Assembly (NCBI GenBank): GCA_021793645.1 | Contig: JAJYSJ010000007.1 | Coordinates: 62,001-126,000, forward strand | Direction: 5' to 3' | Length of the DNA: 64,000 nt | DNA from: Bacillota bacterium | Lineage (GTDB): Bacteria; Bacillota; Sulfobacillia; JAJZYS01; JAJYTV01 | Shown: piece after piece, positions 1-59,179 of the stretch | How positions within the stretch are numbered: position 1 is the stretch's first letter | How the letters are laid out: each line of letters begins with the position of its first letter | Program-made: the position numbers and the translations under genes | Notes under the pieces: generated by a model | What the model was told of the DNA's origin: nothing | The model's input: only the letters and a program-made list of their open reading frames with translations | The model's database searches: none

Positions 1-3000
1 GGGGCCGCGGCTGGAACGCCGCGGGCGGAAAACTTAGCGATACGATCTATTACTAAAACCCGTAAGGCTTCAATGGGGCCGCGGCTGGAACGCCGCGGGC
101 GGCGGGCCGCGTGCTCTCATGGGTCACGCGCGACGGGGGCAGCTTCAATGGGGCCGCAGGGTACGCAATGCTTCAATGGGGCCGCGGCTGGAACGCTGCG
201 GGCGGCTCCTACTTCAACCAGGACTCACTCGACATCACAGCGCTTCAATGGGGCCGCGGCTGGAACGCCGCGGGCGGTCGACGTAGAGGTTTCCGGCGGC
301 CGCGAACGGCCACGGGCTTCAATGGGGCCGCGGCTGGAACGCCGCGGGCGGTCCGGCAGATGAGAGGCCTCGAACGCCCAGAGCACCACGCTTCAATGGG
401 GCCGCGGCTGGAACGCCGCGGGCGGTTCGGGTAGCCGATGGCGTTCTTGATGTGGCCGCCAGCGCTTCAATGGGGCCGCGGCTGGAACGCCGCGGGCGGA
501 GCTGATCGCGACCTACGAGCGTCCGCAGGTTTCCTAGCTTCAATGGGGCCGCGGCTGGAACGCCGCGGGCGGCGCCGCGATCCGCGAGGGCATCCCGGCG
601 CAGGAACTCGCGCTTCAATGGGGCCGCGGCTGGAACGCCGCGGGCGGAAGGAGCGCATTCGCGAACTGATCGCGCGCAACACGGCTTCAATGGGGCCGCG
701 GCTGGAACGCCGCGGGCGGTGGCCCCTGCCGGCTAGATTAGCCCTGCCTGTTAGAGCTTCAATGGGGCCGCGGCTGGAACGCCGCGGGCGGCGACGTTGC
801 GAGGCCACAGCGGACTTCCATTTGTGGTGCTTCAATGGGGCCGCGGCTGGAACGCCGCGGGCGGGTCGCGGGTTCGGCCACGCGGTCGCAAGCGGCTTCC
901 TGCTTCAATGGGGCCGCGGCTGGAACGCCGCGGGCGGGAGAACGCCTCTGCGGGACCCGTCAGCCACGTCCAGCGCTTCAATGGGACCGCCCGCGGCTGG
1001 AACGCCGCGGGCGGTCCCAGACTAAGCACTGCGCCCTGCGAACCTAGAGGCTTCAATGGGGCCGCGGCTGGAACGCCGCGGGCGGCCACACGTTCCACCC
1101 GAACAGGTGAAACTCTCCTGCGCTTCAATGGGGCCGCGGCTGGAACGCCGCGGGCGGGCACACCCGGTGCAACCTTCCCACGAGGATTGGTCGCTTCAAT
1201 GGGGCCGCGGCTGGAACGCCGCGGGCGGTGGGCAGCGGCGGCCAAGCTGTCGGGGATCCGCGGATCGGCTACGCTTCAATGGGGCCGCGGCTGGAACGCC
1301 GCGGGCGGCACGAAGACCGAATGGGTGATCGAGGAGAACGAGAAGGGGCTTCAATGGGGCCGCGGCTGGAACGCCGCGGGCGGGGGCGCCTTGGCTAAAC
1401 GAGTGGCCCACGCGGGGAGTCGAGCTTCAATGGGGCCGCGGCTGGAACGCCGCGGGCGGGGTTCTCGGGGATGCGTTTGTTGGCCGCCCCGTCACCGCTT
1501 CAATGGGGCCGCGGCTGGAACGCCGCGGGCGGCTTCTCCCCGGCAAGGACAGCCTCCTATTCCAGATCAAGCTTCAATGGGGCCGCGGCTGGAACGCCGC
1601 GGGCGGTACCGGGATTGGCACAGTAGTCAGTTCTATTCTTGGGCTTCAATGGGGCCGCGGCTGGAACGCCGCGGGCGGTGCCGTCCTGGCGGGCGATGTG
1701 CCATTCGCGCACAGAGGGCTTCAATGGGGCCGCGGCTGGAACGCCGCGGGCGGCGGCTCAGACGGTCGGTATCGGCGGCGTCGACTCGGGGCTTCAATGG
1801 GGCCGCGGCTGGAACGCCGCGGGCGGCGGGCACGGTGCGCGTGCGAAGGGCCCTCGTGCCGGTGCTTCAATGGGGCCGCGGCTGGAACGCCGCGGGCGGC
1901 GGGCACGGTGCGCGTGCGAAGGGCCCTCGTGCCGGTGCTTCAATGGGGCCGCGGCTGGAACGCCGCGGGCGGGGCGAGTCCACGCGGAGATGCGATAGCG
2001 GAGCGCGTCCTGCTTCAATGGGGCCGCGGCTGGAACGCCGCGGGCGGCCCGTTACCGCGGTTACGTCGCCCCAGGTTGCGTAGGGCTTCAATGGGGCCGC
2101 GGCTGGAACGCCGCGGGCGGATGGTGTCCACGCTCTCGAACCCGGACGCGAACAAGCTTCAATGGGGCCGCGGCTGGAACGCCGCGGGCGGGACGGCGCC
2201 GGCGGATGACCAGATCGCGCAAGTCACCGCTTCAATGGGGCCGCGGCTGGAACGCCGCGGGCGGCCGCTCCCTGACTGACAACAGGAAAGCTGTAATAGG
2301 CTTCAATGGGGCCGCGGCTGGAACGCCGCGTGCGGGCCGCTCGCGCTCACGTCCCCCCTGCAGGCTCCCACGCTTCAATGGGGCCGCGGCTGGAACGCCG
2401 CGGGCGGTCATCACCAACGAGACGGCCTACCCCACGTTCATCGAGCTTCAATGGGGCCGCGGCTGGAACGCCGCGGGCGGGCAGCTGTGGCATGTCCACT
2501 GGCCCTCCATCGCACAGCTTCAATGGGGCCGCGGCTGGAACGCCGCGGGCGGCTGGCAGAACGGGTCGATCTCCACCTGCCAACGAACCTCGCTTCAATG
2601 GGGCCGCGGCTGGAACGCCGCGGGCGGATGGCATCCCGGGTTAGTACTGCGGCGCTGAAGTTGCTTCAATGGGGCCGCGGCTGGAACGCCGCGGGCGGCA
2701 GGACCGAAAAGACTGCTAGGAGGGTTCAGGGATGCTTCAATGGGGCCGCGGCTGGAACGCCGCGGGCGGGCAAAGCCGGGAGCCGGCAAGAGTGCCCTTG
2801 GAGCGGCTTCAATGGGGCCGCGGCTGGAACGCCGCGGGCGGCAGGTTACACGGCGGCACAGCTTCTCGACCCTCTGACGCTTCAATGGGGCCGCGGCTGG
2901 AACGCCGCGGGCGGGCTGTCGGCGACACGCAGGCGCAGCAGGATCTCTAGCTTCAATGGGGCCGCGGCTGGAACGCCGCGGGCGGTTCGGCGCGCAACGC

Positions 3001-4156
3001 GGTCCAATATTCCTAGAGGTGATGCTTCAATGGGGCCGCGGCTGGAACGCCGCGGGCGGAGGGACTTCCAGCGGGGGCGGCTACGGCAGCGGCTCAGCTT
3101 CAATGGGGCCGCGGCTGGAACGCCGCGGGCGGGCCGAAATCGAGTGGCGAAAGCGACAAGTCCGTGTCGAGCTTCAATGGGGCCGCGGCTGGAACGCCGC
3201 GGGCGGTTGGTACTTCCCGCGACGCGCCAGATTCGACCGCACGCTTCAATGGGGCCGCGGCTGGAACGCCGCGGGCGGACGATGGCCGAGTTCTTCGTAA
3301 GAGCAGTGATGATGGAGCTTCAATGGGGCCGCGGCTGGAACGCCGCGGGCGGGGTGTTGCGGGATGCGCTGGACCCCCTGCTCGCGGAGCTTCAATGGGG
3401 CCGCGGCTGGAACGCCGCGGGCGGTTGGCGAGGCGGCCACTCTGAAGGCTCGCGCGGATGGGCTTCAATGGGGCCGCGGCTGGAACGCCGCGGGCGGCCG
3501 CTCAGTGCGAGCGAGGCGGCGCTTCTTCACGCGCTTCAATGGGGCCGCGGCTGGAACGCCGCGGGCGGCGCGAAGCACAAGCAGAGATGCACGGAACCAT
3601 AGGTATGGCTTCAATGGGGCCGCGGCTGGAACGCCGCGGGCGGAACGACGACGAGCCGCAGGGCGACCCGAACCAGGACCCGCTTCAATGGGGCCGCGGC
3701 TGGAACGCCGCGGGCGGTGCGCATGAATGGATGAGCTGGACTGCCGGCACGCGCGCTTCAATGGGGCCGCGGCTGGAACGCCGCGGGCGGCGTCCAAGTT
3801 CCGCTAAATTCAGAATGCGTTGCTGTCGCTTCAATGGGGCCGCGGCTGGAACGCCGCGGGCGGAGGCGGCACCGCGGCTGAATCGCTTCCTGTGGTTCGT
3901 CGGGCTTCAATGGGGCCGCGGCTGGAACGCCGCGGGCGGCCATTGGATCATCGGGCGCATCATCGACGTGATCCCCGCTTCAATGGGGCCGCGGCTGGAA
4001 CGCCGCGGGCGGCGCCGTCGCGGGCATCATGGGCTACGCGATGGGCGCGCTTCAATGGGGCCGCGGCTGGAACGCCGCGGGCGGGTTCTCGACGTGGGTG
4101 CAGAAAGCGCATGAGTTCGGGCTTCAATGGGGCCGCGGCTGGAACGCCGCGGGCGG
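1..4156 (-). CRISPR. CRISPR array, about 58 repeat units (56 full-length, one truncated, one cut by the window edge); 36-bp repeat GCTTCAATGGGGCCGCGGCTGGAACGCCGCGGGCGG on +, spacers mostly 35-40 nt
   Basis: Near-perfect 36-bp repeat at about 73-bp periodicity from position 1 to 4156, with unique intervening sequences. On the minus strand the repeat reads CCGCCCGCGGCGTTCCAGCCGCGGCCCCATTGAAGC, which ends in ATTGAAGC and contains a 7-bp stem CCGCGGC/GCCGCGG with loop GTTCCA. This suggests transcription on the minus strand, away from the cas2-proximal end. The array continues off the left edge. Confidence 0.98.
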
Positions 4157-4331
4157 AGTCGGGCTGGAAACCCGCTCTGGGAGCCGGGTTCGACGCTGGA
4201 GTGCGAGCACCTGCTCGGGTCGGAGCCTTAGAGGGGGGTGGTGGCGGGTTAAGACAAGTAGGCCCGCTCGTGGAGCGGGCCTCGGAGTGCGAGCGAACCC
4301 CGGAGTGTGGGCGGCACGTCGACGCTCGCAG
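4157..4331 (-). promoter_or_regulatory. Putative CRISPR leader between cas2 stop and first repeat
   Basis: Non-coding interval between the cas2 stop and the leader-proximal repeat. Repeat polarity places the leader here. Contains a 10-bp perfect hairpin AGGCCCGCTC-GTG-GAGCGGGCCT (4260-4282). Confidence 0.7.
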
Positions 4332-4619
4332 TTAGATTACGATCACGCGCTTTCCGGCTTCCCAGCGGGCGAGGCCGAACGTTGTCAGGCGGGCCTTGCC
4401 CGTTTCGGCTGGACCCAGGTCGATGATCGCGAGCGCGTCTTCGCCGTGGTGCATGGCTTCGTGCAGTCGACCGAGAAGGACTTGGCGCTCCGTGGGGGAG
4501 AGGGCGCAGAGGAACACGGACAGTTGGACGGGATCGCCGTGACCAAGCATCATCTTGTGCACCTTGCGCCAGCGTTTGGGGTCTGCGATGTCATAGCACA
4601 CGAGGTAGGTGTTGCGCAT
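4332..4619 (-). CDS. cas2: CRISPR-associated endoribonuclease Cas2
   Basis: 95 aa MRNTYLVCYDIADPKRWRKVHKMMLGHGDPVQLSVFLCAL...; Cas2 N-terminal YLVCYDI(A/S)D motif; next to cas1 and the array. Confidence 0.93.
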   Translation of the reverse strand: MRNTYLVCYDIADPKRWRKVHKMMLGHGDPVQLSVFLCALSPTERQVLLGRLHEAMHHGEDALAIIDLGPAETGKARLTTFGLARWEAGKRVIVI

Positions 4620-4654
4620 GTCAGCGGGTGAGGTACGCGGGGTAGCGGGGTAGC

Positions 4655-6295
4655 TCAACCGGTCAAGACGCGGGCGAAGAGGCGTGCCTGGACTTCGAGG
4701 GTGCGCCGGTAGGCGATGCGGTAGCCGAAGAGGGGATGTTCGGCCTCGGAGTTCATGCGGGACTCGTAGGCTTGGATCGCGGTCTTCCTTCCGGATGGGG
4801 TGAGCGACACGGCGCCGGCGCGGGCGATGAAGTCGGATGGAGTGAGCATGTGACGGTTGAAGAGACCGATGGCGACCGAGTCGACGATCAAGGCGCGGAA
4901 CTCCTCCATGAGGTCGAGCGCGAGAGAAGGTCGGCCGTGGCCTGGATGGTGGTAGATGCCGACGTAGGGGTCGAGACCGACGGCGTGCAGCGTTACGGTC
5001 AGGTCGCGTGCCAGGAGGGCATAGCCGAGGGATAGTACTGCGTTGACTGGGTCTTTCGGAGGGCGGCGGTTGCGCTCGCGGAAGTCGAAGTCCGTTAGGG
5101 TGGTTTCCGTGAACATGTCGCGAAAGTGCGCGTAGTAGAGACCTGCCGCCGTTCCTTCGATGCCAAGAAGCTCGGAGGTGTTCTTCGCGGTGAGCGCGTG
5201 GTGGGCCAGGCCGCGGAGCTGGAGAACGACCCGTTCGGGAAGAGCGTCCGCGTTGCGACGCAGGAGGGTGCGCTGGTTGAGGATCTTTGCGCGCACGACC
5301 TCGCGGGCCAGGGGCAGCGAAGCCTGAGGGTCGGCGGCCGTCGCGAACTGGCGAATCCGCAGAGGCGCGGCTTTTCGCGGGAGTCCCTGGTAGGTGCCAT
5401 AGAAGTAGCCGCCGTGGGAAAGGAAGCAGACGGGGACGTCTCGGCTCGCGAGCTCTTGCAAGACGGCGGTCGAGACCTGCACCGCGCCGAAGACCGAGAG
5501 TTGGGAGATGTCGATGAGCTTCGCTTCGGCGAGGACCTGGCTGTCTTTGCGGACGACGAGCCGTTCGCCCGCCTTGCCGACCCAGGCTCCCTGCTCGCTG
5601 ACGTAGAGGGGGAGAGAGTCCGGGCGAGAGGGGTACAGGAGGCGCAGGCTGCGTCGCTGGATGCGAGGGCTCTCCGGGGTGCGGGAGAGAAGGTTGACCT
5701 CGTCCGGCAGGCAGATGCCAACGAGGGAACAGCGGGCGCACTTGGGGCTGTCCTGGAGCGCCGGCGGCGGCGCGGAGCCTTGGGCTGCTGCGCGCGCCTC
5801 GGCGAGAAGGGTCAGGGTGCGCTCTACGAGTGGGTCGTCGAAGGGCACCTCTACACGCTGGCGTGTGGCCGAAAAGTAGAGGATCCCCCGATCGCAGCGG
5901 TAACCGTGGCCGCGGAGGATGAGTCCCTGGACGCAGAGCTGCACGCGCTCGGGCTCCCAGGACCGCTCGCGGTTGTCCGGGGGTTGCCCGCGTTTGTAGT
6001 CCACCGGGATAACCGTTCCCTGGTCTCCTTCTACGAGATCCATCCTGGCGATCAGCCCGTGCTGTGGGTCGCTGAGTTCCACGGAGCGGGCGTGGATGGC
6101 GTCGGTATCCGAGCCGGGCGGCGGCATGGTGCCCCCTGCCTGATCGACGCGGCGGTGGACGAACCTGCCCTCCACGGTGTCCACGCTGTCGGCCCACTCC
6201 CCATCGACCCACTCGAGGTACATGAGCCGCGGGCAGTAGGCGAACTCATTGAGCATGCGGGCAGGGACGAGTGGTGAGGCGTCAAGCGGGAGCAT
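4655..6295 (-). CDS. cas4-cas1: Cas4-Cas1 fusion (adaptation protein)
   Basis: MLPLDASPLVPARMLNEFAYCPRLMYLEWV... with Cas4 Cys cluster (CPRLMYLEW; CARCSLVGIC) fused to Cas1 (VLSLGYALLARDLTVTLHAVGLDPYVGIYHHPGHGRPSLALDLMEEFRALIVD). Fusion typical of type I-U/I-G loci. Confidence 0.95.
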   Translation of the reverse strand: MLPLDASPLVPARMLNEFAYCPRLMYLEWVDGEWADSVDTVEGRFVHRRVDQAGGTMPPPGSDTDAIHARSVELSDPQHGLIARMDLVEGDQGTVIPVDYKRGQPPDNRERSWEPERVQLCVQGLILRGHGYRCDRGILYFSATRQRVEVPFDDPLVERTLTLLAEARAAAQGSAPPPALQDSPKCARCSLVGICLPDEVNLLSRTPESPRIQRRSLRLLYPSRPDSLPLYVSEQGAWVGKAGERLVVRKDSQVLAEAKLIDISQLSVFGAVQVSTAVLQELASRDVPVCFLSHGGYFYGTYQGLPRKAAPLRIRQFATAADPQASLPLAREVVRAKILNQRTLLRRNADALPERVVLQLRGLAHHALTAKNTSELLGIEGTAAGLYYAHFRDMFTETTLTDFDFRERNRRPPKDPVNAVLSLGYALLARDLTVTLHAVGLDPYVGIYHHPGHGRPSLALDLMEEFRALIVDSVAIGLFNRHMLTPSDFIARAGAVSLTPSGRKTAIQAYESRMNSEAEHPLFGYRIAYRRTLEVQARLFARVLTG

Positions 6296-7634
6296 TGCGT
6301 CCTCCTCTCGCGTGGTCCGACGGCAGGAAGAGGCCCATCCCGAAGTGGCAGGCTGCGCCGATCGCGATCGGGCCCGAGACGAGCTGCGGGAAGGCAATCT
6401 CCGCAAAGTGGCGGGGCCCAGGTGAAAGGTGGGCCCCGCTCACCTTGCGGAAGACTTCTGCGGCCGCGTCCACGCGCAGCAGCCGAACATCCTTCGGCGC
6501 CGGCAGGCCGCGCCGCGAGAGTTCCAGCAGGATCTGGTCGGTCGGGCTGTCCTGCTGGTGCCCCCGCACCGTCTTGGCATGGCGGATGGGAGCGAAGGGG
6601 AGGTGGCTGACCCAGTTCGCTGCGGGTCCCAGCAGCGCCGGGGGGGCCGCGTCGGACGCGCGCTTGAGACGGACGCGCGCACTGAGGCCAGGACCCGGGT
6701 AGATGACGCGGAGCTCCTCGAGCGCCGACACCTCCAATTTGCCCATGCCCGCAGCGGTGTAGACCGTAAGGTGGTCGATGAAACCATCACCATCCTCGTC
6801 CGTCGGGAGGAAGTGCGCGTGGCGGTGCTGCGGCGAAGGGGTTCCCGTCACCGGGTCCTTGCCGGAGAAGACGGCGGAGACCGCTCCGCCGTTTTGGCGT
6901 CCGTAGCGGGCCATTGAAGCGCGGCGTGCCTGTTCTGCGAAGGCGTAGCCTGCGTCAAGCGGGAGGCTCCCTGTGACGCGATAACGGAAGAGTTCCAAGA
7001 GGGGAGAACTGGGCAGATCGGAGGGCAGACGACCGCTGATCGCAGCCTTGGGACGGTAGTACCGCGCAAGGATCGCCGTATGGGGCAAGCCGTCCTCGGG
7101 GCGGCGGGCGTGCAGCGACGTTGGGTCCGCGTCGCTGCCGGCTGCCAGGAGAGAGACCTCGTCGCAGGGCAGGGGCCCTGGCGCGGTGCCGCAGGCGAGG
7201 AGGGACACGTCGGCCGGAGGACCCGGCGCGATGGACAAGGCGGTCCGCGTGTCGCTGCGCCCCAGGTACGTGACCCTGGAGAGCAGCGTCGCAAGGGCAC
7301 GCTCTTGCGTCTTCATAAGCGAAAGCGTGGGCCACGACGCGTAGATCGTCGCCTGGGTGGGATCCAGTGCGACGAAGCCTGCGTACTCCTGGGGCGATCT
7401 GGTCGGGACGTACCCGACCGACGCCTGCGGCAGGTGGTAGAGCGGCGCTTCGCGCAGGCGCTGCAGCCACGGCCAGACGTCATCCACGACTCCGGCCTGC
7501 TCGGCAGCGTGGACAAGTGCGCGCATTAGACGCCAGGGCGCGGGGGGCCACTCGAAGAGGGCGGCCTCCGCGCCGGAGGTCCAGGGGCTCGGGTGGTAGC
7601 GCCCGTCCGTAAATGCGATGGCCAAGGTCAGCAT
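6282..7634 (-). CDS. csb2: Csb2-like (GSU0054 family) Cas5/Cas6-type protein, copy B
   Basis: MLTLAIAFTDGRYHPSPW...ALFEWPPAPWRLMRALV; HRHAHFLPTDEDGDGFIDHLTVY motif; C-terminal Gly-rich GPIAIGAACHFGMGLF. Overlaps cas4-cas1 start. Confidence 0.8.
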   Translation of the reverse strand: MLTLAIAFTDGRYHPSPWTSGAEAALFEWPPAPWRLMRALVHAAEQAGVVDDVWPWLQRLREAPLYHLPQASVGYVPTRSPQEYAGFVALDPTQATIYASWPTLSLMKTQERALATLLSRVTYLGRSDTRTALSIAPGPPADVSLLACGTAPGPLPCDEVSLLAAGSDADPTSLHARRPEDGLPHTAILARYYRPKAAISGRLPSDLPSSPLLELFRYRVTGSLPLDAGYAFAEQARRASMARYGRQNGGAVSAVFSGKDPVTGTPSPQHRHAHFLPTDEDGDGFIDHLTVYTAAGMGKLEVSALEELRVIYPGPGLSARVRLKRASDAAPPALLGPAANWVSHLPFAPIRHAKTVRGHQQDSPTDQILLELSRRGLPAPKDVRLLRVDAAAEVFRKVSGAHLSPGPRHFAEIAFPQLVSGPIAIGAACHFGMGLFLPSDHARGGRNAPA

Positions 7635-7731
7635 GGCGGTCTTCCTTTCGGGAGGCAGCGGGCTTCGCGTCCGCGTCGAGTACTCTAGCCTCCGATCAAG
7701 CGGAGACAGCGCAGCACGGTCGGCGGTCGCC

Positions 7732-8736
7732 TTATGGTGCTGTGGCGGTGTTCTGCGATCCGCTCCGAACCTGCGCCTGCGCAAAGTTCATGAACTTGCC
7801 CACCGACATGCGTCTGGCGACCATGACATAGGCGACTCCTAGATGGCGAAGGCCGCTCTCTCGCAATTGCGGATGGCCGAGCAGGCTACGTATGGCCGCG
7901 AGCGACGCCGGTTCGCCCCATATGGGCCAAGCGAACGAGAACCCCGCGTGGCTTGACATGCCGCCAATCACCTGTGGTCGAACCCTTCCGGCGCGCGTTT
8001 GTGGGACGACGGTGAGCGCGGCAAGCCCGACCGCGGCGAGGCGGTTGGCTCCATGCTGGGTTCGCTCCTTGAAGGCCTGGTCGGTCGGGTCGCCGGCCAT
8101 GAGCGCGTACCGCACGTCCTCTTGGGGATCCCAGCGGAAGGAGAAGGTAGGATCTTGGCGCAGCCAGGGCTTGAACAATGCTTCTGAAATGCACTCCGCA
8201 GCGGAGATGGCGACGGCCACCTCACCGTTGCGGCGCGGCGGCGGCGCGGGCAAAGCCGGCACACTCGCCAACCGGTCGAGGAAGTGCTGGTGTCCTTGAC
8301 CGAACAGCAGACACAGCGGCGTGGGGTCGATCGTCTCTGTACTCTTCACCGCCGCGTCGGTCAGCAGAGATGCGAGGAGATCTACGCGGCCGCGTCTCGA
8401 CGCATCGGCGGACTCCGTAGCGGCCACCAGCAGTTCGCGGGCATCCGTTTGCGGGTGATTGAGGTCCGACCGGCCGCCGAAGTCATGGTCCTCGGCAAGG
8501 AGTGAGACTCCTTCCGCGATGAACTCGGCGACTTGGTCCCGCGTTGTCGTGCAGGCAAGGTGAAGCATCGGGCGGTGAGGTTGCTGCTGGAGATCCCACG
8601 ACGCGCGCGGACGGAGTCCCTTCTCCTCACGGCGGTCGACGGCGTTCAATGCCCGCAAAACGCCGAGCAGCGCCAGAAAAGCCAGCAGGTTGTCCGGCTC
8701 AAGCCCGTCGAGACGATGTGTTGCGTCGGCGCTCAT
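7732..8736 (-). CDS. Type I-G associated protein of uncertain role (334 aa; N-terminus LDGLEPDNLLAFLALLGVLRAL; candidate large-subunit-like or Cas3-accessory protein)
   Basis: Overlaps cas3 by an ATGA-type junction (8733-8736). N-terminal GLEPDNLLAFLALLGVLRAL resembles the N-termini of I-U/I-G accessory/large subunit proteins. No full-length Csx17/Cas8 elsewhere in the operon. Confidence 0.5.
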   Translation of the reverse strand: MSADATHRLDGLEPDNLLAFLALLGVLRALNAVDRREEKGLRPRASWDLQQQPHRPMLHLACTTTRDQVAEFIAEGVSLLAEDHDFGGRSDLNHPQTDARELLVAATESADASRRGRVDLLASLLTDAAVKSTETIDPTPLCLLFGQGHQHFLDRLASVPALPAPPPRRNGEVAVAISAAECISEALFKPWLRQDPTFSFRWDPQEDVRYALMAGDPTDQAFKERTQHGANRLAAVGLAALTVVPQTRAGRVRPQVIGGMSSHAGFSFAWPIWGEPASLAAIRSLLGHPQLRESGLRHLGVAYVMVARRMSVGKFMNFAQAQVRSGSQNTATAP

Positions 8737-11700
8737 GCCGTGCCTCCCTTGACTCCCTCTTGCTCCGCTTCAGAGACTCGATGGTCTGCGAGGCGCACGA
8801 TGGCTTCCAACCGGGCGAGTTCCCACATGCCATAGCGAGCCTTCAGGTGTTCGAAGAGGGACGGCCAATCGAACCCGTTCCAGCAATAGGCGAGCGACTC
8901 AGGGCCGGAGTCTTTCGTAAGCAGGATCCGACTGCCGAGGACCGGTGGCAGATCCTCACGCGCCTCGCCGTCGGTTGGATCGTTGTGGGGAAAGAAGGGC
9001 CTGCCCCACCCGTGATGGGCGCCGATCAGCCACAAGACGAGTCCAGCGTCGTCGGCCTCCCGAAAGCGCGGATGGAGCGGCGCAAGCCGCACGGAGAGCG
9101 CCTCGTGTCGCCAGTCCTTCGGCAGTCCCACGCGCCCTTTGGCGTTGCGGGGTGCGTAACGGGCGGACTTGGCCAGCACGTGAAGCGGATCAGGCCCAAG
9201 TGGATCGCTATACGCCAGTAGAGCCTGGAACCGCGGGTCGGCTTTGCCAGCATCGTGCAGGTATGCGGCGAGTCTGAGATCGCCGATCAGCGCTTCCGGT
9301 AGACCGATACGGCGAGCGCAGTCCTCGGCTACCGCCTCTACGCGGCTGCAATGCGCTTGGAGGGGCACGGCCACGCCTTGCATGGAGCCGGCAACGTCAT
9401 CTTCCGTTGCGCCACCCCGGCCATCCTCCGCCAGCTTGCCTCCCTCCACCCCAAACGGAGCGACGAAGACGACGCCGCGGGGGCGACCCTGCTCATCAGT
9501 GCCATACACATCGGTGTAGGCGACCACTCTTTCGTTGCGCCCCCTGACTTTGGCACCGTCGAGGGATGCAAGGTCCTCTTTTACCGACTGCGGCAGATCG
9601 AGCCGGCAAACGGCGTCCCGCAAGTCCCGCCAGTGATGCATCCCCTCGCTGGCAAGGACCTCCTGGAGGGGCTCTGATGCCGAAGGACCCAAGAGTTCTT
9701 CGGTGACCCGGACCGCAAAGCGGCGTCCTGAGAACGCCTTCGCGGCTGCAGCTGCAACGTCCGTAGCCAGGGAGCTGCTTTGCGGGTTCCAGCCGTACGC
9801 GTCGACCCCACCGTAGGCGGCGGGCACCACGACCGTGTCGCCCGGTCGTATTGCAGAGGGAGCAATCCAGTCCGAGCGGTCGACGTCGCCTGCCCAGCGG
9901 AAGACCAAGCGGCGAGTTCTCCGTGGCTGCAGCCGCGTGCCGTCCTCGTCGTCTGGGGGCGAAGTCGCGACGTCAGCCAACTGATCAAGACCCGCTTGGC
10001 CTGCTTCAAGCCAACGGCGTACGGCCCAGACCGGAAGCTCGATCGCTTCAGCAGAGCGCGGTGGGACGAGCAGCAGCAGGTTGCGCGCGTCGCGAGAGGG
10101 CTGGATGTCTGCCCGCCAAACTAGGGTGACTGATGTCGGCTGGCGGTTGGGGCCGTGCAGGAAGAGACCAACCTCGGGATCGGCAGACGGAATGGGAGAG
10201 GTCTGGCTCAGCAGGTCAAGATGTGCGGGCAGCAGGACAGGACCGCACGGTTTGGGCGACAATGCGTCCCCGGAGATTGGCCGCAGATCCGTCAACGCCT
10301 GGAACGCAGCAAGTCCAAAGTCGATGGTGCGAGTTGTCGCCTTCTTTATTGGAGGATCGGTGCTCTCGATCAGATAGCTCCAGCTGTTGCGGATGGCCTC
10401 ACCGTAGACTGGGTCCTCGGTACGAGACGACAGGTCCGACTTGGCCGCGATGATGGCAGCGTAGGGTGTAATGGCCCGGCCGGAGCGGTTGAGCCGCCCG
10501 AAGCGCTGACGAAGAGCATCCAGTGGCGCGGCCTCGGTGATGAGCCCGTCGAGATCGATGTCCACGCCCGCCTCGAGGCACTGCGTTGCGACCAACACCA
10601 TCGGCTTCCGCAGGTGGCGCACTTCGCCTGGACCCCAGGTTCGGGTGCGAATTGGATCGAGTTGCTCTGCGATCTCTGCGCGATCGATCGGGCGGGCAGG
10701 GCCAATCATCAGCAGCGGCTCTCCGATTTCAACCTGGGAGGCCTTCAGCGCTTCATAGACGTCCCGTGCCCGGCCAACGCGATTCACCACAACCCCGATA
10801 GCAGGATCGGGGATCCCGTCCTTCGCAAAGGTGTCAAGCCCGCGCAACACCTCGTTCACGATGGCGGCTACGCGCTGCTTGTGTTCGGCCTCGGCCGCTA
10901 TCTCCACGCGGTCGTCGGATTCGGTCGCTTCCATAGTGTTCTTCGCTTTGGACAACTCGACCAGCCGCGTTGGCTTAGAAGCAAGCCAGCGCGCCGACAG
11001 AACGGGGTGGGCGTAGTCTTCGGACTCGAGGACGAAGGGCTTCGCCGGCTCGTGCCCGGGCGTCGCAGTCAGCAGCGTTACGCCCCACGGGCCGGTCGCG
11101 CAATCATCAGCATGCCACTTCCTCCCGCGGTAGAGCTTGATCCAGCCAAGCGTCTGCCGGAACGGCTCGGCCAGGTGCGCCTCGTCGAGCATGATGCGGC
11201 AGTCGGATCCGAGCAGTCCGGCATGAATCGGCTTCGCTCGGTCGGACACCCCGTAACCGCGGAAGAGCAGCCGTGAGCCGATCTGATCGACCGTGGAACA
11301 CAGGATCGTCGGCTGCACCGGAGTACGGGCCCAGTCATCCTCACGCGGGATGCCTCCACGCAGGCGGCGGACGACGAGGGGATCATGCGTTCCCGCCAAG
11401 CGCCTGAGGCGTAGAGCAACAAGTTCTGTAACTCGACCTGGGGGAGCCAGGAGGGTCTTTGCGATTTTCCTCGCCCGCTCAAATGCATCATCTACCACGA
11501 GCCTGCGGTCTACTGCGAGAACAATGCGGACGGGGGCGCTGCGCTCGCTGCCGAGCTCCGCTTCGAGGGCAAGGTGAAAGACGGCGATGTCCAACACCGC
11601 GGTCTTGCCAGAACCGGTTGGCAGGTCGAGCACTTCCGGCCACTCACCCGTTTCAGCAACCGATGCCGCAAGGCGTCGCTGCCAAGGGAAGGGGTCGCAT

Positions 11701-11756
11701 CCGTGGACCTCTTCGAAGAACGTTGCGAAGTCTTTTGGCGAAAGATGGGCGCTCAT
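8733..11756 (-). CDS. cas3: CRISPR-associated helicase-nuclease Cas3, helicase followed by C-terminal HD domain
   Basis: PFPWQRRLA, DLPTGSGKTAVLDIAVF (Walker A), IMLDEAHL (DEAH), VLVATQCLEAGVDIDLD, then C-terminal HD (AAYLHDAGKADPRFQ; GAHHGWGRPF). The helicase-HD order is characteristic of I-U/I-G Cas3. Confidence 0.95.
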   Translation of the reverse strand: MSAHLSPKDFATFFEEVHGCDPFPWQRRLAASVAETGEWPEVLDLPTGSGKTAVLDIAVFHLALEAELGSERSAPVRIVLAVDRRLVVDDAFERARKIAKTLLAPPGRVTELVALRLRRLAGTHDPLVVRRLRGGIPREDDWARTPVQPTILCSTVDQIGSRLLFRGYGVSDRAKPIHAGLLGSDCRIMLDEAHLAEPFRQTLGWIKLYRGRKWHADDCATGPWGVTLLTATPGHEPAKPFVLESEDYAHPVLSARWLASKPTRLVELSKAKNTMEATESDDRVEIAAEAEHKQRVAAIVNEVLRGLDTFAKDGIPDPAIGVVVNRVGRARDVYEALKASQVEIGEPLLMIGPARPIDRAEIAEQLDPIRTRTWGPGEVRHLRKPMVLVATQCLEAGVDIDLDGLITEAAPLDALRQRFGRLNRSGRAITPYAAIIAAKSDLSSRTEDPVYGEAIRNSWSYLIESTDPPIKKATTRTIDFGLAAFQALTDLRPISGDALSPKPCGPVLLPAHLDLLSQTSPIPSADPEVGLFLHGPNRQPTSVTLVWRADIQPSRDARNLLLLVPPRSAEAIELPVWAVRRWLEAGQAGLDQLADVATSPPDDEDGTRLQPRRTRRLVFRWAGDVDRSDWIAPSAIRPGDTVVVPAAYGGVDAYGWNPQSSSLATDVAAAAAKAFSGRRFAVRVTEELLGPSASEPLQEVLASEGMHHWRDLRDAVCRLDLPQSVKEDLASLDGAKVRGRNERVVAYTDVYGTDEQGRPRGVVFVAPFGVEGGKLAEDGRGGATEDDVAGSMQGVAVPLQAHCSRVEAVAEDCARRIGLPEALIGDLRLAAYLHDAGKADPRFQALLAYSDPLGPDPLHVLAKSARYAPRNAKGRVGLPKDWRHEALSVRLAPLHPRFREADDAGLVLWLIGAHHGWGRPFFPHNDPTDGEAREDLPPVLGSRILLTKDSGPESLAYCWNGFDWPSLFEHLKARYGMWELARLEAIVRLADHRVSEAEQEGVKGGTA

Positions 11757-13264
11757 GCCACACCCTCCGGATCGCGGATCGGACGGCAAAGCCCGAGCCC
11801 GAGGTACCGGCCGGCACCAAGGATCACTGGTCCTTGGACCGGCTCGGCAAAGCGCACCACGGCATGTGTGAGCGCGCGGCCGGAGAGTGAGGGGGGCAGA
11901 CGCCAGCGCAACCATCTCGGCGACTTGCCGGAGGGTTCGGCCGGCGGGGCTCCCTCAATCGCGGAGTGCTTGTCCGGGAACGCGGCGAGACGGCCCCCCC
12001 CACTTATTTCAATGGTCTCTGGTTCGGGTAGGCCGATGTTTCGGCAGGCGTCGCCTATTTGCTTGGCGATCTCCGCTTCGCGCTCCGCACCATGTTCCTT
12101 CAGGTGTCGGTCGAGCACAATCGGAGTGACAGTGGCAAACGTGCGTGTGGGGTGGCCGTTGAGGGTGATATAGAGCGTGGGATTAAGCGAGCTGAGGCTG
12201 GGATCGCTCGTTGGCGCCAGACCAATGGTGAAGCCGGGACCGCCGCGTTCCGCGCCGTCGATGCGCAGTATCCGTCGCCCTACTTCGGAGTCCAGCGGTG
12301 CGAGATGCCTGAAGGCGCTCAGGAAGTTGGCGTCCTTGAGGATCCAGTTGCCTCTTGGGGGCACCAACCCAAAGCCAAGTACGCGGCCATCCGAATGGGG
12401 GAAGCCGGTGAATGAGAGCGGCACGATCGCTAGGTGCGGCGCGCGCAGGGGAGTGCCCTCCGACGTGAGGCCGCTGACTGTTTCCGGAACCTGGCCGCGG
12501 AGGCCGATCTCTTCGTAGGCTGAGACCAGTTTGTCTCGAATCGCCTTGGCTACCATTGCTGCTGCGCGGAGGTCTGGCATTTCGCCGTCCACATGTTCGA
12601 GCAGGAGCCAGTCGGTCGAGAAGATGGTTCCTGGGGCTTCGATCGGGGATCTGGGTACTGGCGCGATGACAGCGCCGGGGTTCGGCCGCCGCCCGGCTTT
12701 GAACGCGGCTTGAAGTTCGGCGAACCGCCCTGGATACACTGCGCGCACCGCATTCCGACATGCCTTAGGGGGTGTACACGCATCCGACCGGCGAAACTTG
12801 CAGCGCGTGAGACTGGCGGAATGGCCAACGTACGCAGTATCTACCGCCAGCGCATCAAGCGCGGAAAAGGTGGCGTCGTCGACATCCGTGTCAGGCCAGA
12901 ACAGGTGCACGACGGGATCCTCAGGACAAGCCGCAGGGAAGCTTCGCGGTTGACGCCGCCGCATTCCCGGAAACACCTCGGCCGCGTGCTTCCCTTTCGT
13001 GGATGAAGGATCGTTTGGCGGGACGAAGCTGACGTGCGACGTGCGGGGCGAAAAATCGGAAGCCAGCAGCAAGGGCGGAGGCAACCGCTCGAGCCATTCA
13101 AGGGCGCTCGCTTCGTTTTGAGACTGCCCACGTGCCGCCCAGGCGGCAACGAGAGCAGAGAAGATACGGTCGGGTTGTGGCGGCCAATCAGGAGCGTCAC
13201 TGCCGAGCCCTGCCGATGCGTAGGCGATTCCTGTGAGGTACTCCACCTCGAGGGCGAGCGTCAT
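11753..13264 (-). CDS. csb2: Csb2-like (GSU0054 family) Cas5/Cas6-type protein, copy A
   Basis: MTLALEVEYLTGIAYASAGLGSDAPDWPPQPDRIFSALVAAW; PHLAIVPLSFTGFPHSDGRVLGFGLVPPRG; TPIVLDRHLKE; C-terminal GPVILGAGRYLGLGLCRP. 4-bp overlap with cas3 start. Confidence 0.82.
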   Translation of the reverse strand: MTLALEVEYLTGIAYASAGLGSDAPDWPPQPDRIFSALVAAWAARGQSQNEASALEWLERLPPPLLLASDFSPRTSHVSFVPPNDPSSTKGKHAAEVFPGMRRRQPRSFPAACPEDPVVHLFWPDTDVDDATFSALDALAVDTAYVGHSASLTRCKFRRSDACTPPKACRNAVRAVYPGRFAELQAAFKAGRRPNPGAVIAPVPRSPIEAPGTIFSTDWLLLEHVDGEMPDLRAAAMVAKAIRDKLVSAYEEIGLRGQVPETVSGLTSEGTPLRAPHLAIVPLSFTGFPHSDGRVLGFGLVPPRGNWILKDANFLSAFRHLAPLDSEVGRRILRIDGAERGGPGFTIGLAPTSDPSLSSLNPTLYITLNGHPTRTFATVTPIVLDRHLKEHGAEREAEIAKQIGDACRNIGLPEPETIEISGGGRLAAFPDKHSAIEGAPPAEPSGKSPRWLRWRLPPSLSGRALTHAVVRFAEPVQGPVILGAGRYLGLGLCRPIRDPEGVA

Positions 13265-14457
13265 CTCTCTTCGTCCGCCTCGCCGCCTTCACCAGAAAGC
13301 GCAAGCCTCTGGCTCTGGCGGACAATTGATACGAGCTTCTCCTGGGGAGTCAGACGGATGGGTTCTGGGGGAAACACGAAGCCTGCCTGCACTGCGACTT
13401 TCAGGGCTTCCTTATAGATCGCACGCGCCCCTTCGCGATCGAGTGCCACTTCATTCACAGAGCCGTCGGGGTGTACGAGCTCCAATGGCGCCTGCTCTTC
13501 CGGGACGAGGTCGCAGCGTGACCGAAGGGCGTACCCTTGAACGTCCTGCTCAGCCATTGCAAGAAGACCGAGTGCGGCCAGAAGTGTCCTGCCCGCGGCA
13601 TTCCTCTCGTCAGAGCCGAACCTGAGGCGCCGAAGAGCAGCGAAACTCAGAACGAACATGTGCTCAAGGTAATCGCACGTAATGCCAAGCGATTGGATGG
13701 ATGGAGCGATATTGCCGTGGTTGATCTCTGACGGACGGACCTTCTTAGCGCCATCGACCCGCTCCGCAGAAGTGTCCCAATCGCTCGTTCCCTTGTAAAC
13801 TTCCACTTTGCGCAGAACGCCAAGGGGATCAATCCGGCTGCTTGTGCGCCGCCCCGCGTTGCGCGGCTCAACCTCGCCGGTTCTGGGATTGGCCCACTGG
13901 TCCACGGGTACGTTCACGGCGATGACTTCCGAAACGAGGCTTCGTGCAAACTTAGCGCCCAAACCGCCGCCGCCGCCGGTCGAGTGCCATGCCCCAAAGA
14001 TCAGAGCGGTTGGCGAAATCTCCAGCAAGGCCGAGGCGTCCTCGAACTTTGCCTGTGCTAGGCGCTGGCCGACGTCGCTTACCATGAAGGGCTTTCCGTC
14101 CAGCAGACTGTCCCGCAGGATCGCGTCGTACACGCGGTGTGGGGCATCCAATGAGGTGACCTCGGAAATGCCGGGAAGGTTGCTGCCCCTGAAGTCCACC
14201 GTTACATATGGGATGTTAACCGCGCCGGACCGGATCGCCGAAAGAAGGTTCTCCTCCAAGCGATTGGCTTGGGACTGAACACTGTCGACGAGAACGCACC
14301 AGACATCCTCGCCCTGTACCCGACGACGTTCGAACACATGACGCGGTTGGGCGTTCAGCCCCTCGCCGGGATAAGTGGGGGGAAACACCTTGTCCCCCTT
14401 GCCCCCAATCGGCTGGAGCCGTTGACGCCGGCGGAGCGCAGCATCGCCGGATACCAT
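13261..14457 (-). CDS. csb1: Csb1 (Cas7 family, type I-G backbone subunit; GSU0053-like)
   Basis: GDKVFPPTYPGEG...CVLVDSVQSQANRLEE...GAWHSTGGGGGLGAKFARSLVSEVIAVNV; first gene of the cas operon. Confidence 0.88.
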   Translation of the reverse strand: MVSGDAALRRRQRLQPIGGKGDKVFPPTYPGEGLNAQPRHVFERRRVQGEDVWCVLVDSVQSQANRLEENLLSAIRSGAVNIPYVTVDFRGSNLPGISEVTSLDAPHRVYDAILRDSLLDGKPFMVSDVGQRLAQAKFEDASALLEISPTALIFGAWHSTGGGGGLGAKFARSLVSEVIAVNVPVDQWANPRTGEVEPRNAGRRTSSRIDPLGVLRKVEVYKGTSDWDTSAERVDGAKKVRPSEINHGNIAPSIQSLGITCDYLEHMFVLSFAALRRLRFGSDERNAAGRTLLAALGLLAMAEQDVQGYALRSRCDLVPEEQAPLELVHPDGSVNEVALDREGARAIYKEALKVAVQAGFVFPPEPIRLTPQEKLVSIVRQSQRLALSGEGGEADEER

Positions 14458-18353: not shown

Positions 18354-18387
18354 GCTTCCGGCGCACTGCGAAGCGGGAGGTGGACGT

Positions 18388-18930
18388 TTGTTAGGGCGAC
18401 AGCGCCGCAAGGCGCTGCGAGATGCGGCGCAGACGATCGTCGTCGCCGTCGTGCTGGCGCTTGTGATTCGCACGTTCCTCGTCGAGCCATTCGTCGTGGA
18501 CGGCGTCTCGATGGAGAACACCCTGCAAAACAACGAGCGTCTGCTTGTCAATAAACTGTGGTTTCATTTCAGCCCCTTGCACTATGGCGAGATCGTGATC
18601 TTCCAGCCCCCGATCCCCGGACAGCCGCTCTATGTCAAGCGGGTGATCGCGACCTCCGGGCAGACGATATCGATGGTCAACGGGAAAGTCTTCGTAAACG
18701 GTAGGGCGATGCCTCAACCATTCCTGGTACATCACGGCGTGAGTACCCAGGACCATTGGAACATGCCGCCGTTCAAGGTGCCCAAGGGCGACATCTTCGT
18801 CCTTGGAGACCATCGTGCAGAGAGCCGCGACAGCCGGTACTTCGGTCCGGTCAGTGTAAACGCCGTGCAGGGAGTCGCGTTCTGGGTGATCTGGCCCATA
18901 CAGCAGTTCGGGCCGGTGCCTTCGCCATGA
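18388..18930 (+). CDS. lepB: Signal peptidase I (first of tandem pair)
   Basis: VIRTFLVEPFVVDGVSMENTLQNNERLLVNKL...GDIFVLGDHRAESRDSRYFGPV; Ser/Lys catalytic boxes. Confidence 0.94.
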   Translation: MLGRQRRKALRDAAQTIVVAVVLALVIRTFLVEPFVVDGVSMENTLQNNERLLVNKLWFHFSPLHYGEIVIFQPPIPGQPLYVKRVIATSGQTISMVNGKVFVNGRAMPQPFLVHHGVSTQDHWNMPPFKVPKGDIFVLGDHRAESRDSRYFGPVSVNAVQGVAFWVIWPIQQFGPVPSP

Positions 18931-18965
18931 GGGGAAGCACTGCGCGCGAAGCGGGAGGTGGACGT

Positions 18966-19502
18966 TTGTTTGGGGGACAGCCCCGCAAGGCGCTGCGCGA
19001 CACGCTGCAAACGGTGATCGTGGCCGTCGTCCTGGCACTTGTGATCAGGACATTCGTCGTCGAGCCGTACATCGTGGACGGGTATTCGATGCAGAACACC
19101 TTGCAGAACCACGAGCGTCTGCTCGTCAATAAGCTGTTGTTTCATTTCAGTTCGTTGCACTACGGCGAGATCGTGGTCTTCCAGCCCCCAATCCCGGGCC
19201 AGCCGCCGTACGTCAAGCGCGTGATCGCGACAGGCGGACAGACCGTATCGATGGTCAACGGACAGGTCTTCGTGAACGGCAAGGCGATGCCCCAGCCGTA
19301 CCTCTTGTACCATGGCGTGAGCACAGAGGATCACTGGAACATGGCGCCCCTCAAGGTGCCCAAGGGCGATATCTTCGTCCTAGGCGACCATCGTGCGGCC
19401 AGCGAGGACAGTCGGTTCTTCGGTCCGGTGAGCGTCAGTGCAGTGCAGGGCGTCGCGTTCTGGGTGATCTGGCCGCTCAATCAATTCGGGCCGATCCCAT
19501 GA
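18966..19502 (+). CDS. lepB: Signal peptidase I (second of tandem pair)
   Basis: LFGGQPRKALRDTLQTVIVAVVLALVIRTFVVEPYIVDGYSMQNTLQNHERLLVNKL...GDIFVLGDHRAASEDSRFFGPV; TTG start aligned to that of the upstream copy. Confidence 0.93.
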   Translation: MFGGQPRKALRDTLQTVIVAVVLALVIRTFVVEPYIVDGYSMQNTLQNHERLLVNKLLFHFSSLHYGEIVVFQPPIPGQPPYVKRVIATGGQTVSMVNGQVFVNGKAMPQPYLLYHGVSTEDHWNMAPLKVPKGDIFVLGDHRAASEDSRFFGPVSVSAVQGVAFWVIWPLNQFGPIP

Positions 19503-21831: not shown

Positions 21832-21844
21832 GCGATAAACCCCC

Positions 21845-21995
21845 CTTGACTCGCTTCCGGGGTTAGCTCTGGGTTCGGACCTAGGGAGAAGGCCCGTCGC
21901 TTGCGCGATTCACCCGGCGGCCATGGCGCATTGCGGCATGGCGCAATTGGTTCCCCCGTACGCCGCTCACGCGGCGATTCAGCATGGGTTCATTC
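21845..21995 (-). ncRNA. ydaO/yuaA-type c-di-AMP riboswitch (candidate)
   Basis: Minus strand reads CTGAATCGCC...TACGGGGGAACCAATT...GCCGGGTGAATCGCGC...GGGCCTTCTCCCTAGGTCCGAACCCAGAGCTAACCCCGGAAGCG. This matches the conserved ydaO motif blocks (GAAUC, GGGGGAACC, GGGUGAAUC, CGAACCC..AGCUAACC). Sits directly upstream of a LysM/NlpC gene, a typical regulon member. Confidence 0.85.
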
Positions 21996-59013: not shown

Positions 59014-59060
59014 GAGAGGCTGTTGGCATTGACAGGCGGCGCACTCCGGCATAGACTCTC

Positions 59061-59146
59061 CTTGCCTAGGGGAGCAAACAGCTGAGAGTGCGCCGCAGGG
59101 CGCAGACCCTACCAACCTGAACTGGGTAATGCCAGCGTAGGGAAGG
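59061..59146 (+). ncRNA. TPP riboswitch (THI element)
   Basis: CTTGCCTAGGGGAGC...CAGCTGAGAGTG...AGACCCTACCAACCTGAACTGGGTAATGCCAGCGTAGGGAA matches the THI box (CUGAGA; ACCUGA.CUGG.UAAUGCCAGCG.AGGGAA). Confidence 0.96.
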
Positions 59147-59179
59147 CGCAGCGGAACGATGGTTGACGCATGCAACCTC

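What the first reader, a model, noticed from the sequence alone, without database searches (positions are those of the whole stretch)
4332..14457. Type I-G CRISPR-Cas operon with two divergent csb2-like genes and no recognisable full-size Cas8/Csx17
Gene order is csb1 - csb2(A) - cas3 - 334-aa protein - csb2(B) - cas4/1 - cas2. Known I-U/I-G effectors use Csb1 (Cas7), Csb2 (Cas5-Cas6 fusion) and a Cas8-like or Csx17 subunit. Here two proteins share the Csb2 architecture (WPP.P.R...ALV near the N-terminus, Gly-rich C-terminus). Only copy B has the HRHAHFLPTDEDGDGFIDHL block. Only copy A has the PHLAIVPLSF.G..HSDGRVLGFGLVPP block. This suggests division of labour, for example one Cas5-like and one Cas6-like crRNA nuclease, or crRNA cap versus processing.
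Basis: partly seen in the sequence, partly recalled or inferred. Interest (0 to 1): 0.75.

Follow-up and report, generated by a model that had tools for sequence, protein, structure and literature searches.

The report
CRISPR chimera with split crRNA processing
A bacterial CRISPR immune operon has been stitched together from two sub-lineages of the same subtype, so it carries two versions of a normally single two-part protein, and each version appears to be decaying in the half that the other still supplies, which would split one fused job (building the complex and cutting its guide RNA) between two genes.

Summary
The operon is real: csb1–csb2A–cas3–334 aa–csb2B–cas4/1–cas2 plus a 56-repeat array. 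Two corrections. The 334-aa protein is the known short type I-G large subunit (NF049934; PADLOC Cas8g). The two 'diagnostic' blocks are homologous lineage signatures sharing one invariant His. Two csb2 genes are not standard: 52 relatives of the short-Cas8 operon, from several phyla, show no B-type csb2 in the stretch recovered. B belongs to Csx17-type I-G loci. The window is a chimera: a short-Cas8 effector module (GC3 0.68–0.74, 4-nt overlaps) joined across a 97-nt gap to csb2B–cas4/1–cas2–array (GC3 0.78–0.82; Cas4/1 groups with Csx17-type loci). The same A plus orphan-B pairing, without csx17, arose independently in Alicyclobacillus, in another genus of the window's class, and in G131, where B is only the Cas6 half. 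Orphan B proteins lose Cas5-half conserved residues (14–22 of 39, or the whole half) but keep the Cas6 His residues. A proteins in five of six paired genomes lost a His that single A proteins keep. A Cas5/Cas6 division of labour is well supported as an evolutionary pattern. It is untested biochemically, and the catalytic residue of A is inferred.

The parts
13261..14457 (-). csb1 (Cas7g), 398 aa; first gene of the effector module
   Evidence: TIGR02570 76 bits, Pfam PF09617 170 bits; GC3 0.677
11753..13264 (-). csb2A, 503 aa; Cas5-Cas6-type Csb2 of the short-Cas8 lineage; SGH His replaced by Leu266
   Evidence: TIGR02165 292 bits, full length; tree within Proteobacterial short-Cas8 clade; H266L; model pLDDT 87
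8733..11756 (-). cas3g, 1007 aa
   Evidence: TIGR02621 812 bits
7732..8736 (-). short large subunit (Cas8g / NF049934 'Cas3-extension'), 334 aa
   Evidence: NF049934 156 bits, PDLC01514 267 bits
7635..7731 (.). 97-nt gap: junction between the two modules
   Evidence: Genes before it overlap by 4 nt; GC3 rises from 0.74 to 0.82 across it
6282..7634 (-). csb2B, 450 aa; Csb2 of the Csx17-type lineage, Cas5-like half eroded, Cas6-half His H272 and H430 kept
   Evidence: TIGR02165 110 bits, PDLC01778 245 bits; 14 of 39 N-half and 5 of 31 C-half conserved residues lost; tree
4655..6295 (-). cas4/cas1 fusion, 546 aa
   Evidence: NF049935 737 bits; groups with Csx17-type and hybrid loci
4332..4619 (-). 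cas2, 95 aa
   Evidence: TIGR01573 37 bits, PADLOC Cas2g 86 bits
4156..4331 (-). leader region between cas2 and the first repeat
1..4155 (-). CRISPR array, 36-nt repeat with 7-bp stem, CCCC linker and ATTGAAGC handle; 56 handle matches, continues past the left window edge

Best explanation
This is a chimeric type I-G locus. A horizontally acquired short-Cas8 effector module (csb1-csb2A-cas3-short cas8) replaced the effector genes of a resident Csx17-type I-G locus, but the resident csb2B-cas4/1-cas2-array stayed. Csb2B, whose Cas6 half kept its conserved His residues, most likely cleaves the pre-crRNA of this array at the CCCC/ATTGAAGC junction, and so works as a Cas6. Csb2A, matched to its own Cas7, Cas8 and Cas3, most likely supplies the Cas5-like part needed for complex assembly and may still cap the hairpin without cutting. 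Shown by sequence: mixed ancestry, independent recurrence of the pairing, unequal decay of the halves. Inferred: the direction of the replacement, which protein cuts, which His is catalytic in A, and where each sits in the complex.
For: Chimera: no B-type csb2 seen in 52 short-Cas8 loci; B is the Csb2 of cas3-csx17-csb1-csb2-cas4/1-cas2 operons in the window's class; window Cas4/1 groups with those (98 support) while csb2A groups with Proteobacterial short-Cas8 systems; GC3 0.68-0.74 versus 0.78-0.82 with a 97-nt gap at the change. Recurrence: orphan B (no csx17) with a short-Cas8 operon in the window, G098/G100, Alicyclobacillus mali and fructus, and G131; one origin of these B rejected, AU p 5.6e-48, and of the H266-lacking A, p 1.7e-5. 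Decay: full-length orphan B lost 14-22 of 39 N-half conserved residues against 0-4 in Csx17-linked B with one exception; G131 B is the Cas6 half alone; H430 kept in 28/28 and H272 in 30/30 B. Alicyclobacillus B: N-half dN/dS 0.36, C-half 0.08. A lacks the SGH His in 5 of 7 genomes with orphan or half B and in 1 of 46 others. Published: the Csb2 C-terminal domain cuts and binds alone, but no complex assembles without the N-terminal domain (PMC9638904).
Against: Window A is otherwise intact in its Cas6 half (2 of 46 lost). G131 A keeps the SGH His, so loss is not universal. The H266 association rests on about three independent lineages; the paired sign test cannot reach significance. G098/G100 B halves show no dN/dS contrast. 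That H266 is catalytic in A, and that B H430 equals Tsu H503, are inferences from position. Window ORFs with GC3 at or below 0.74 are not rare (9 of 30).
Confidence: 0.62

Rival explanations
1. Both Csb2 proteins are complete, redundant Cas5-Cas6 subunits; the second is a leftover of module exchange with no special role.
For: Both match TIGR02165 over its full length; window A has lost only 2 of 46 C-half conserved residues; G098/G100 B halves evolve at similar rates.
Against: A useless leftover should decay evenly, but orphan B keep both His in every case and lose mainly the N-half; G131 keeps only the Cas6 half in the operon; Alicyclobacillus C-half dN/dS is 0.08.
Confidence: 0.18
2. Repeat specificity rather than subunit splitting: B processes this array because A cannot read its repeat, and A still works as a full Cas5-Cas6 on other RNA.
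For: Hybrid arrays lack the CCTC linker found in 23 of 25 readable single-A arrays of the main clade, with 0 of 4 hybrid arrays, Fisher p 6e-4.
Against: Csx17-type arrays use several linkers including CCTC; the window genome has only one array of this repeat form for A to act on; loss of the SGH His is unexplained.
Confidence: 0.15
3. Csb2B serves mainly another function or system, for example as a general Cas6 shared with a different CRISPR type.
For: The Cas6 half of B-type Csb2 also occurs beside a type III-B operon in G445 (L198), so the domain can be shared across systems.
Against: The window genome has no csx17 and one array of this repeat form; csb2B is co-directional with cas4/1-cas2 and overlaps cas4/1 by 14 nt.
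Confidence: 0.05

Closest known systems
Type I-G (formerly I-U) CRISPR-Cas with Csx17/Cas8g1, Thioalkalivibrio sulfidiphilus (Shangguan et al. 2022, PMC9638904)
   Same: Csb1/Cas7, Csb2, Cas3g, Cas4/1, Cas2; repeat with a 7-bp stem, 4-nt linker and 8-nt handle; csb2B is of the Csb2 kind found in Csx17-type operons.
   Different: That system has one Csb2 doing both jobs and a large Csx17 subunit; here there are two Csb2 lineages and a 334-aa large subunit.
Short-Cas8 type I-G operons (NCBIfam NF049934; PADLOC PDLC01514), e.g. Chelatococcus composti (L006)
   Same: csb1-csb2A-cas3-short cas8 in the same order with the same A-type Csb2.
   Different: Those have no B-type csb2 in the recovered stretch, mostly a CCTC repeat linker, and Cas4/1 of another clade.
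Cas6 shared between co-resident CRISPR systems (e.g. I-A Cas6 feeding III-B and I-G in Pyrococcus furiosus, reviewed in PMC11127173)
   Same: One processing nuclease would feed an effector that it did not evolve with.
   Different: Here the donor is a fused Cas5-Cas6 protein in the same operon, losing its Cas5 half while the effector's own fused protein loses a Cas6-half His.

Membership tests
Type I-G CRISPR-Cas | Csb1/Cas7g, Csb2, Cas3g, Cas4g-Cas1g present | tested here: met
   All over their NCBIfam cut-offs
Type I-G CRISPR-Cas | Cas8g-type large subunit | tested here: met
   Short variant: NF049934 156 bits, PDLC01514 267 bits; not a full Csx17, 14.9 bits against a cut-off of 150
Type I-G CRISPR-Cas | A single csb2 gene | tested here: not met
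   Two divergent csb2 genes; usual but not formally required for the subtype
Csx17-type I-G locus | csx17 present | tested here: not met
   No TIGR04113 match in the window's genome; assembly 96% complete
Cas6 crRNA endonuclease (role of Csb2B) | Conserved candidate active-site His in the Cas6-like half | tested here: met
   H430 in 28/28 readable B, H272 in 30/30; equivalence of H430 to Tsu H503 inferred from spacing
Cas6 crRNA endonuclease (role of Csb2B) | Cleavage of the cognate repeat | not testable with these tools
   Needs biochemistry
Cas5-like subunit (role of Csb2A) | Intact Cas5-like N-terminal half | tested here: met
   1 of 50 N-half conserved residues lost; model pLDDT 87 with RAMP-fold matches including a type I-A Cascade chain
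Cas5-like subunit (role of Csb2A) | Loss of RNA cleavage by its Cas6-like half | tested here: inconclusive
   H266 replaced by Leu, but whether this residue is catalytic is not known and the rest of the half is conserved

The most novel reading that the evidence does not exclude
Type I-G repeatedly un-fuses its fused Cas5-Cas6 subunit by complementary decay of two divergent Csb2 proteins, giving a Cascade with separate Cas5-like and Cas6 subunits, and the Cas6 half of Csb2 acts as a mobile processing module that is also adopted by a type III-B locus.
Probability: 0.45. Interest if true: 0.7.

Novelty: new variant of a known kind. Interest (0 to 1): 0.58.

Why it matters
Csb2 is the signature fused subunit of the least understood type I subtype, and it is not settled what its Cas5-like half does. 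These natural hybrids appear to split the two halves between proteins, in one case (G131) down to a Cas6-only protein. That makes the separate roles of the halves, and the matching of repeat, nuclease and effector, directly testable by single-gene deletion.

Tried and rejected
Standard I-G pair: rejected, as no B-type csb2 was seen in 52 short-Cas8 loci. Csb2A as purely Cas5 and Csb2B as purely Cas6 by family: rejected, as both match TIGR02165 end to end. One ancient duplication of the pair: rejected by topology and AU tests. Repeat linker as a clean marker of Csb2 type: rejected, as Csx17-type arrays use several linkers including CCTC. The Cas6-half proteins of G178, G177-C1 and G139 were not counted as hybrids of this kind: G139 and G177 hold csx17, and the half genes of G178 and G177-C1 stand by arrays with other repeats. 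Structure of Csb2B alone: pLDDT 35, unusable. Viral-contig searches gave no answer from the server. PDB sequence searches found no Csb2 relative. Foldseek gave RAMP-fold matches but no residue alignment, so distances in the active site of A could not be measured. The 2025 classification paper PMC12669027 does not name I-G in its held main text. In the script, eight loci that are pieces of the window itself (L189-L196) were labelled single-A; they are excluded from the counts given here, and one unparsed CCTC repeat (L041) is included by eye.

Full report
What is there. Seven cas genes on the minus strand, 14457 to 4332, are followed by a leader and a CRISPR array that runs to the left edge of the window. 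HMM identities are secure for all seven. The repeat, read on the minus strand, folds into a 7-bp stem followed by CCCC and ATTGAAGC. This has the form of the published I-G cleavage site, 4 nt past a 7-bp stem with an 8-nt handle (PMC9638904).

The two Csb2 proteins. A and B both match TIGR02165 over its full length. Their 'diagnostic' blocks fall in the same alignment columns and share the invariant His (A H277, B H272). They differ at two sites. In B a His in the C-terminal Gly-rich loop (H430) is present in all 28 readable B proteins, while A proteins mostly have Phe or Tyr there. In A an SGH His (position 266) is the rule. In Thioalkalivibrio Csb2 the catalytic His is H503, 243 residues after the linker point R260.

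Two lineages joined. A relative search with the 334-aa protein returned 52 loci from Pseudomonadota, Bacillota, Cyanobacteriota, Acidobacteriota, Spirochaetota and Planctomycetota. Those with enough flank carry csb1-csb2A-cas3-short cas8, and none shows a B-type csb2 in the recovered stretch. B-type Csb2 is instead the Csb2 of cas3-csx17-csb1-csb2-cas4/1-cas2 operons in the window's own class (27 of 154 genomes match the B-type profile, some of them only through A-type proteins). The window's Cas4/1 groups with that lineage, while its csb2A groups with Proteobacterial short-Cas8 systems. Composition and gene spacing change at the same point: GC3 0.68, 0.69, 0.72, 0.74 for csb1 to cas8, then 0.82, 0.82, 0.78 for csb2B to cas2, with 4-nt overlaps before the junction and a 97-nt gap at it. 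The GC3 contrast is modest on its own, since 9 of 30 ORFs picked mechanically elsewhere in the window fall as low. The simplest reading is that an incoming effector module replaced a resident Csx17-type effector, and csb2B, cas4/1, cas2 and the array stayed.

Recurrence. Genomes holding short-Cas8 operons were searched for B-type csb2 and for csx17. Where csx17 is also present (G186, G182, G177), B belongs to a separate complete system. B without csx17 alongside a short-Cas8 operon occurs in the window, in two species of one genus (G098, G100; in G100 csb2B-cas4/1-cas2-array stands next to the A operon), in Alicyclobacillus mali and A. fructus (stand-alone csb2B some kilobases from cas4/1-cas2), and in G131, where a 256-aa protein holding only the Cas6 half follows cas8 in the position that csb2B has in the window. 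B of G131 is sister to a B-type Csb2 of G120, B of G098/G100 is sister to the Csx17-linked B of G011, and window B lies elsewhere. A single origin is rejected (AU p 5.6e-48). The A proteins that lost H266 are likewise not one clade (p 1.7e-5). Both groups were named after the trees had been seen, so these p values are not to be taken at face value, and winB is a long branch.

Unequal decay. Using columns conserved in the non-hybrid members, full-length orphan B have lost 14 (window), 22 and 20 (Alicyclobacillus), 15 and 16 (G100, G098) of 39 N-half residues. Csx17-linked B lose 0-4, with one exception (L109, 20, near a contig end). Four further B-type proteins lack the N-half altogether (G131, G177-C1, G178, G139-C226). 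C-half losses in orphan B are 2-7 of 31, and never the two His. Because the conserved columns were defined without the hybrids, some excess loss in them is expected; the contrast between the halves is the informative part. Between the two Alicyclobacillus species the B halves evolve very differently (N: 50% identity, dN/dS 0.36; C: 85%, 0.08); the G098/G100 pair shows no such contrast (0.16 and 0.17). On the other side, A in the window, G100 and G098 has Leu, and A in both Alicyclobacillus has Arg, at H266. Of 46 A proteins not paired with an orphan B only one lacks this His (Cys in L160, in a genome with a second A-type csb2). G131 and G178 keep it. Fisher p is 4e-5, but only about three independent lineages underlie it and the paired sign test cannot reach significance, so this is suggestive rather than proven.

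Mechanism. In the one studied I-G system the Csb2 C-terminal domain cuts and holds the hairpin by itself, but the effector does not assemble without the N-terminal domain (PMC9638904). Put together with the decay pattern, B most likely acts as the Cas6 of this locus and A supplies the assembly half. That the hybrid arrays lack the CCTC linker seen in 23 of 25 readable single-A arrays fits an array processed by a nuclease other than A, although Csx17-type arrays vary. A is otherwise intact in its Cas6 half, so it may still bind the hairpin. H266 lies in the loop after the first helix of the C-terminal half in a confident model; whether it is the catalytic residue of A is not shown.

Comparison. 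I found no description of two-Csb2 I-G loci in the open-access papers held here, but most subscription papers are missing and supplementary files were not searchable; of the papers found, only PMC9638904 was read in depth. Cas6 sharing between systems is known (PMC11127173). The new elements are the recurrent pairing of two Csb2 lineages and the complementary loss of parts of their halves. I class it as a new variant of a known kind.

Noticed in passing
L198 (G445:C184), 1520-11495: A type III-B operon (Cmr1, Cas10, Cmr3, Cmr6, a TIGR02221 protein) is followed by a 266-aa protein that is the Cas6 half of a B-type Csb2; its array repeat is GTCGCACCCCATGCGGGTGCGTGGATTGAAAC.
   Followed up: partly
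L111, L112, L162: A third Csb2 lineage of about 750-840 aa in operons with a ~320-440 aa protein between cas3 and csb1 or near them.
   Followed up: no
L160 (G157), 5123-9407: A second A-type operon in Nitrosovibrio sp. Nv17 whose Csb2A has Cys at the H266 site and lacks the H277 equivalent; upstream lies a decayed fragment resembling the Cas5-like half of B.
   Followed up: partly
window 1831-1862 and 1904-1935: One spacer is duplicated in adjacent units of the array, and a few repeat units are degenerate or missed.
   Followed up: no
window 18368-18667 and 18946-19245: Two tandem copies of a signal-peptidase-like gene, 83% identical over 300 nt; identity of the gene judged by eye only.
   Followed up: no
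window 21836-21994 (-) and 59058-59160 (+): A c-di-AMP riboswitch and a TPP riboswitch, both over the Rfam gathering score.
   Followed up: no
L152 and L153 (Alicyclobacillus): The cas4/cas1 fusion is split into two overlapping frames in both species.
   Followed up: no
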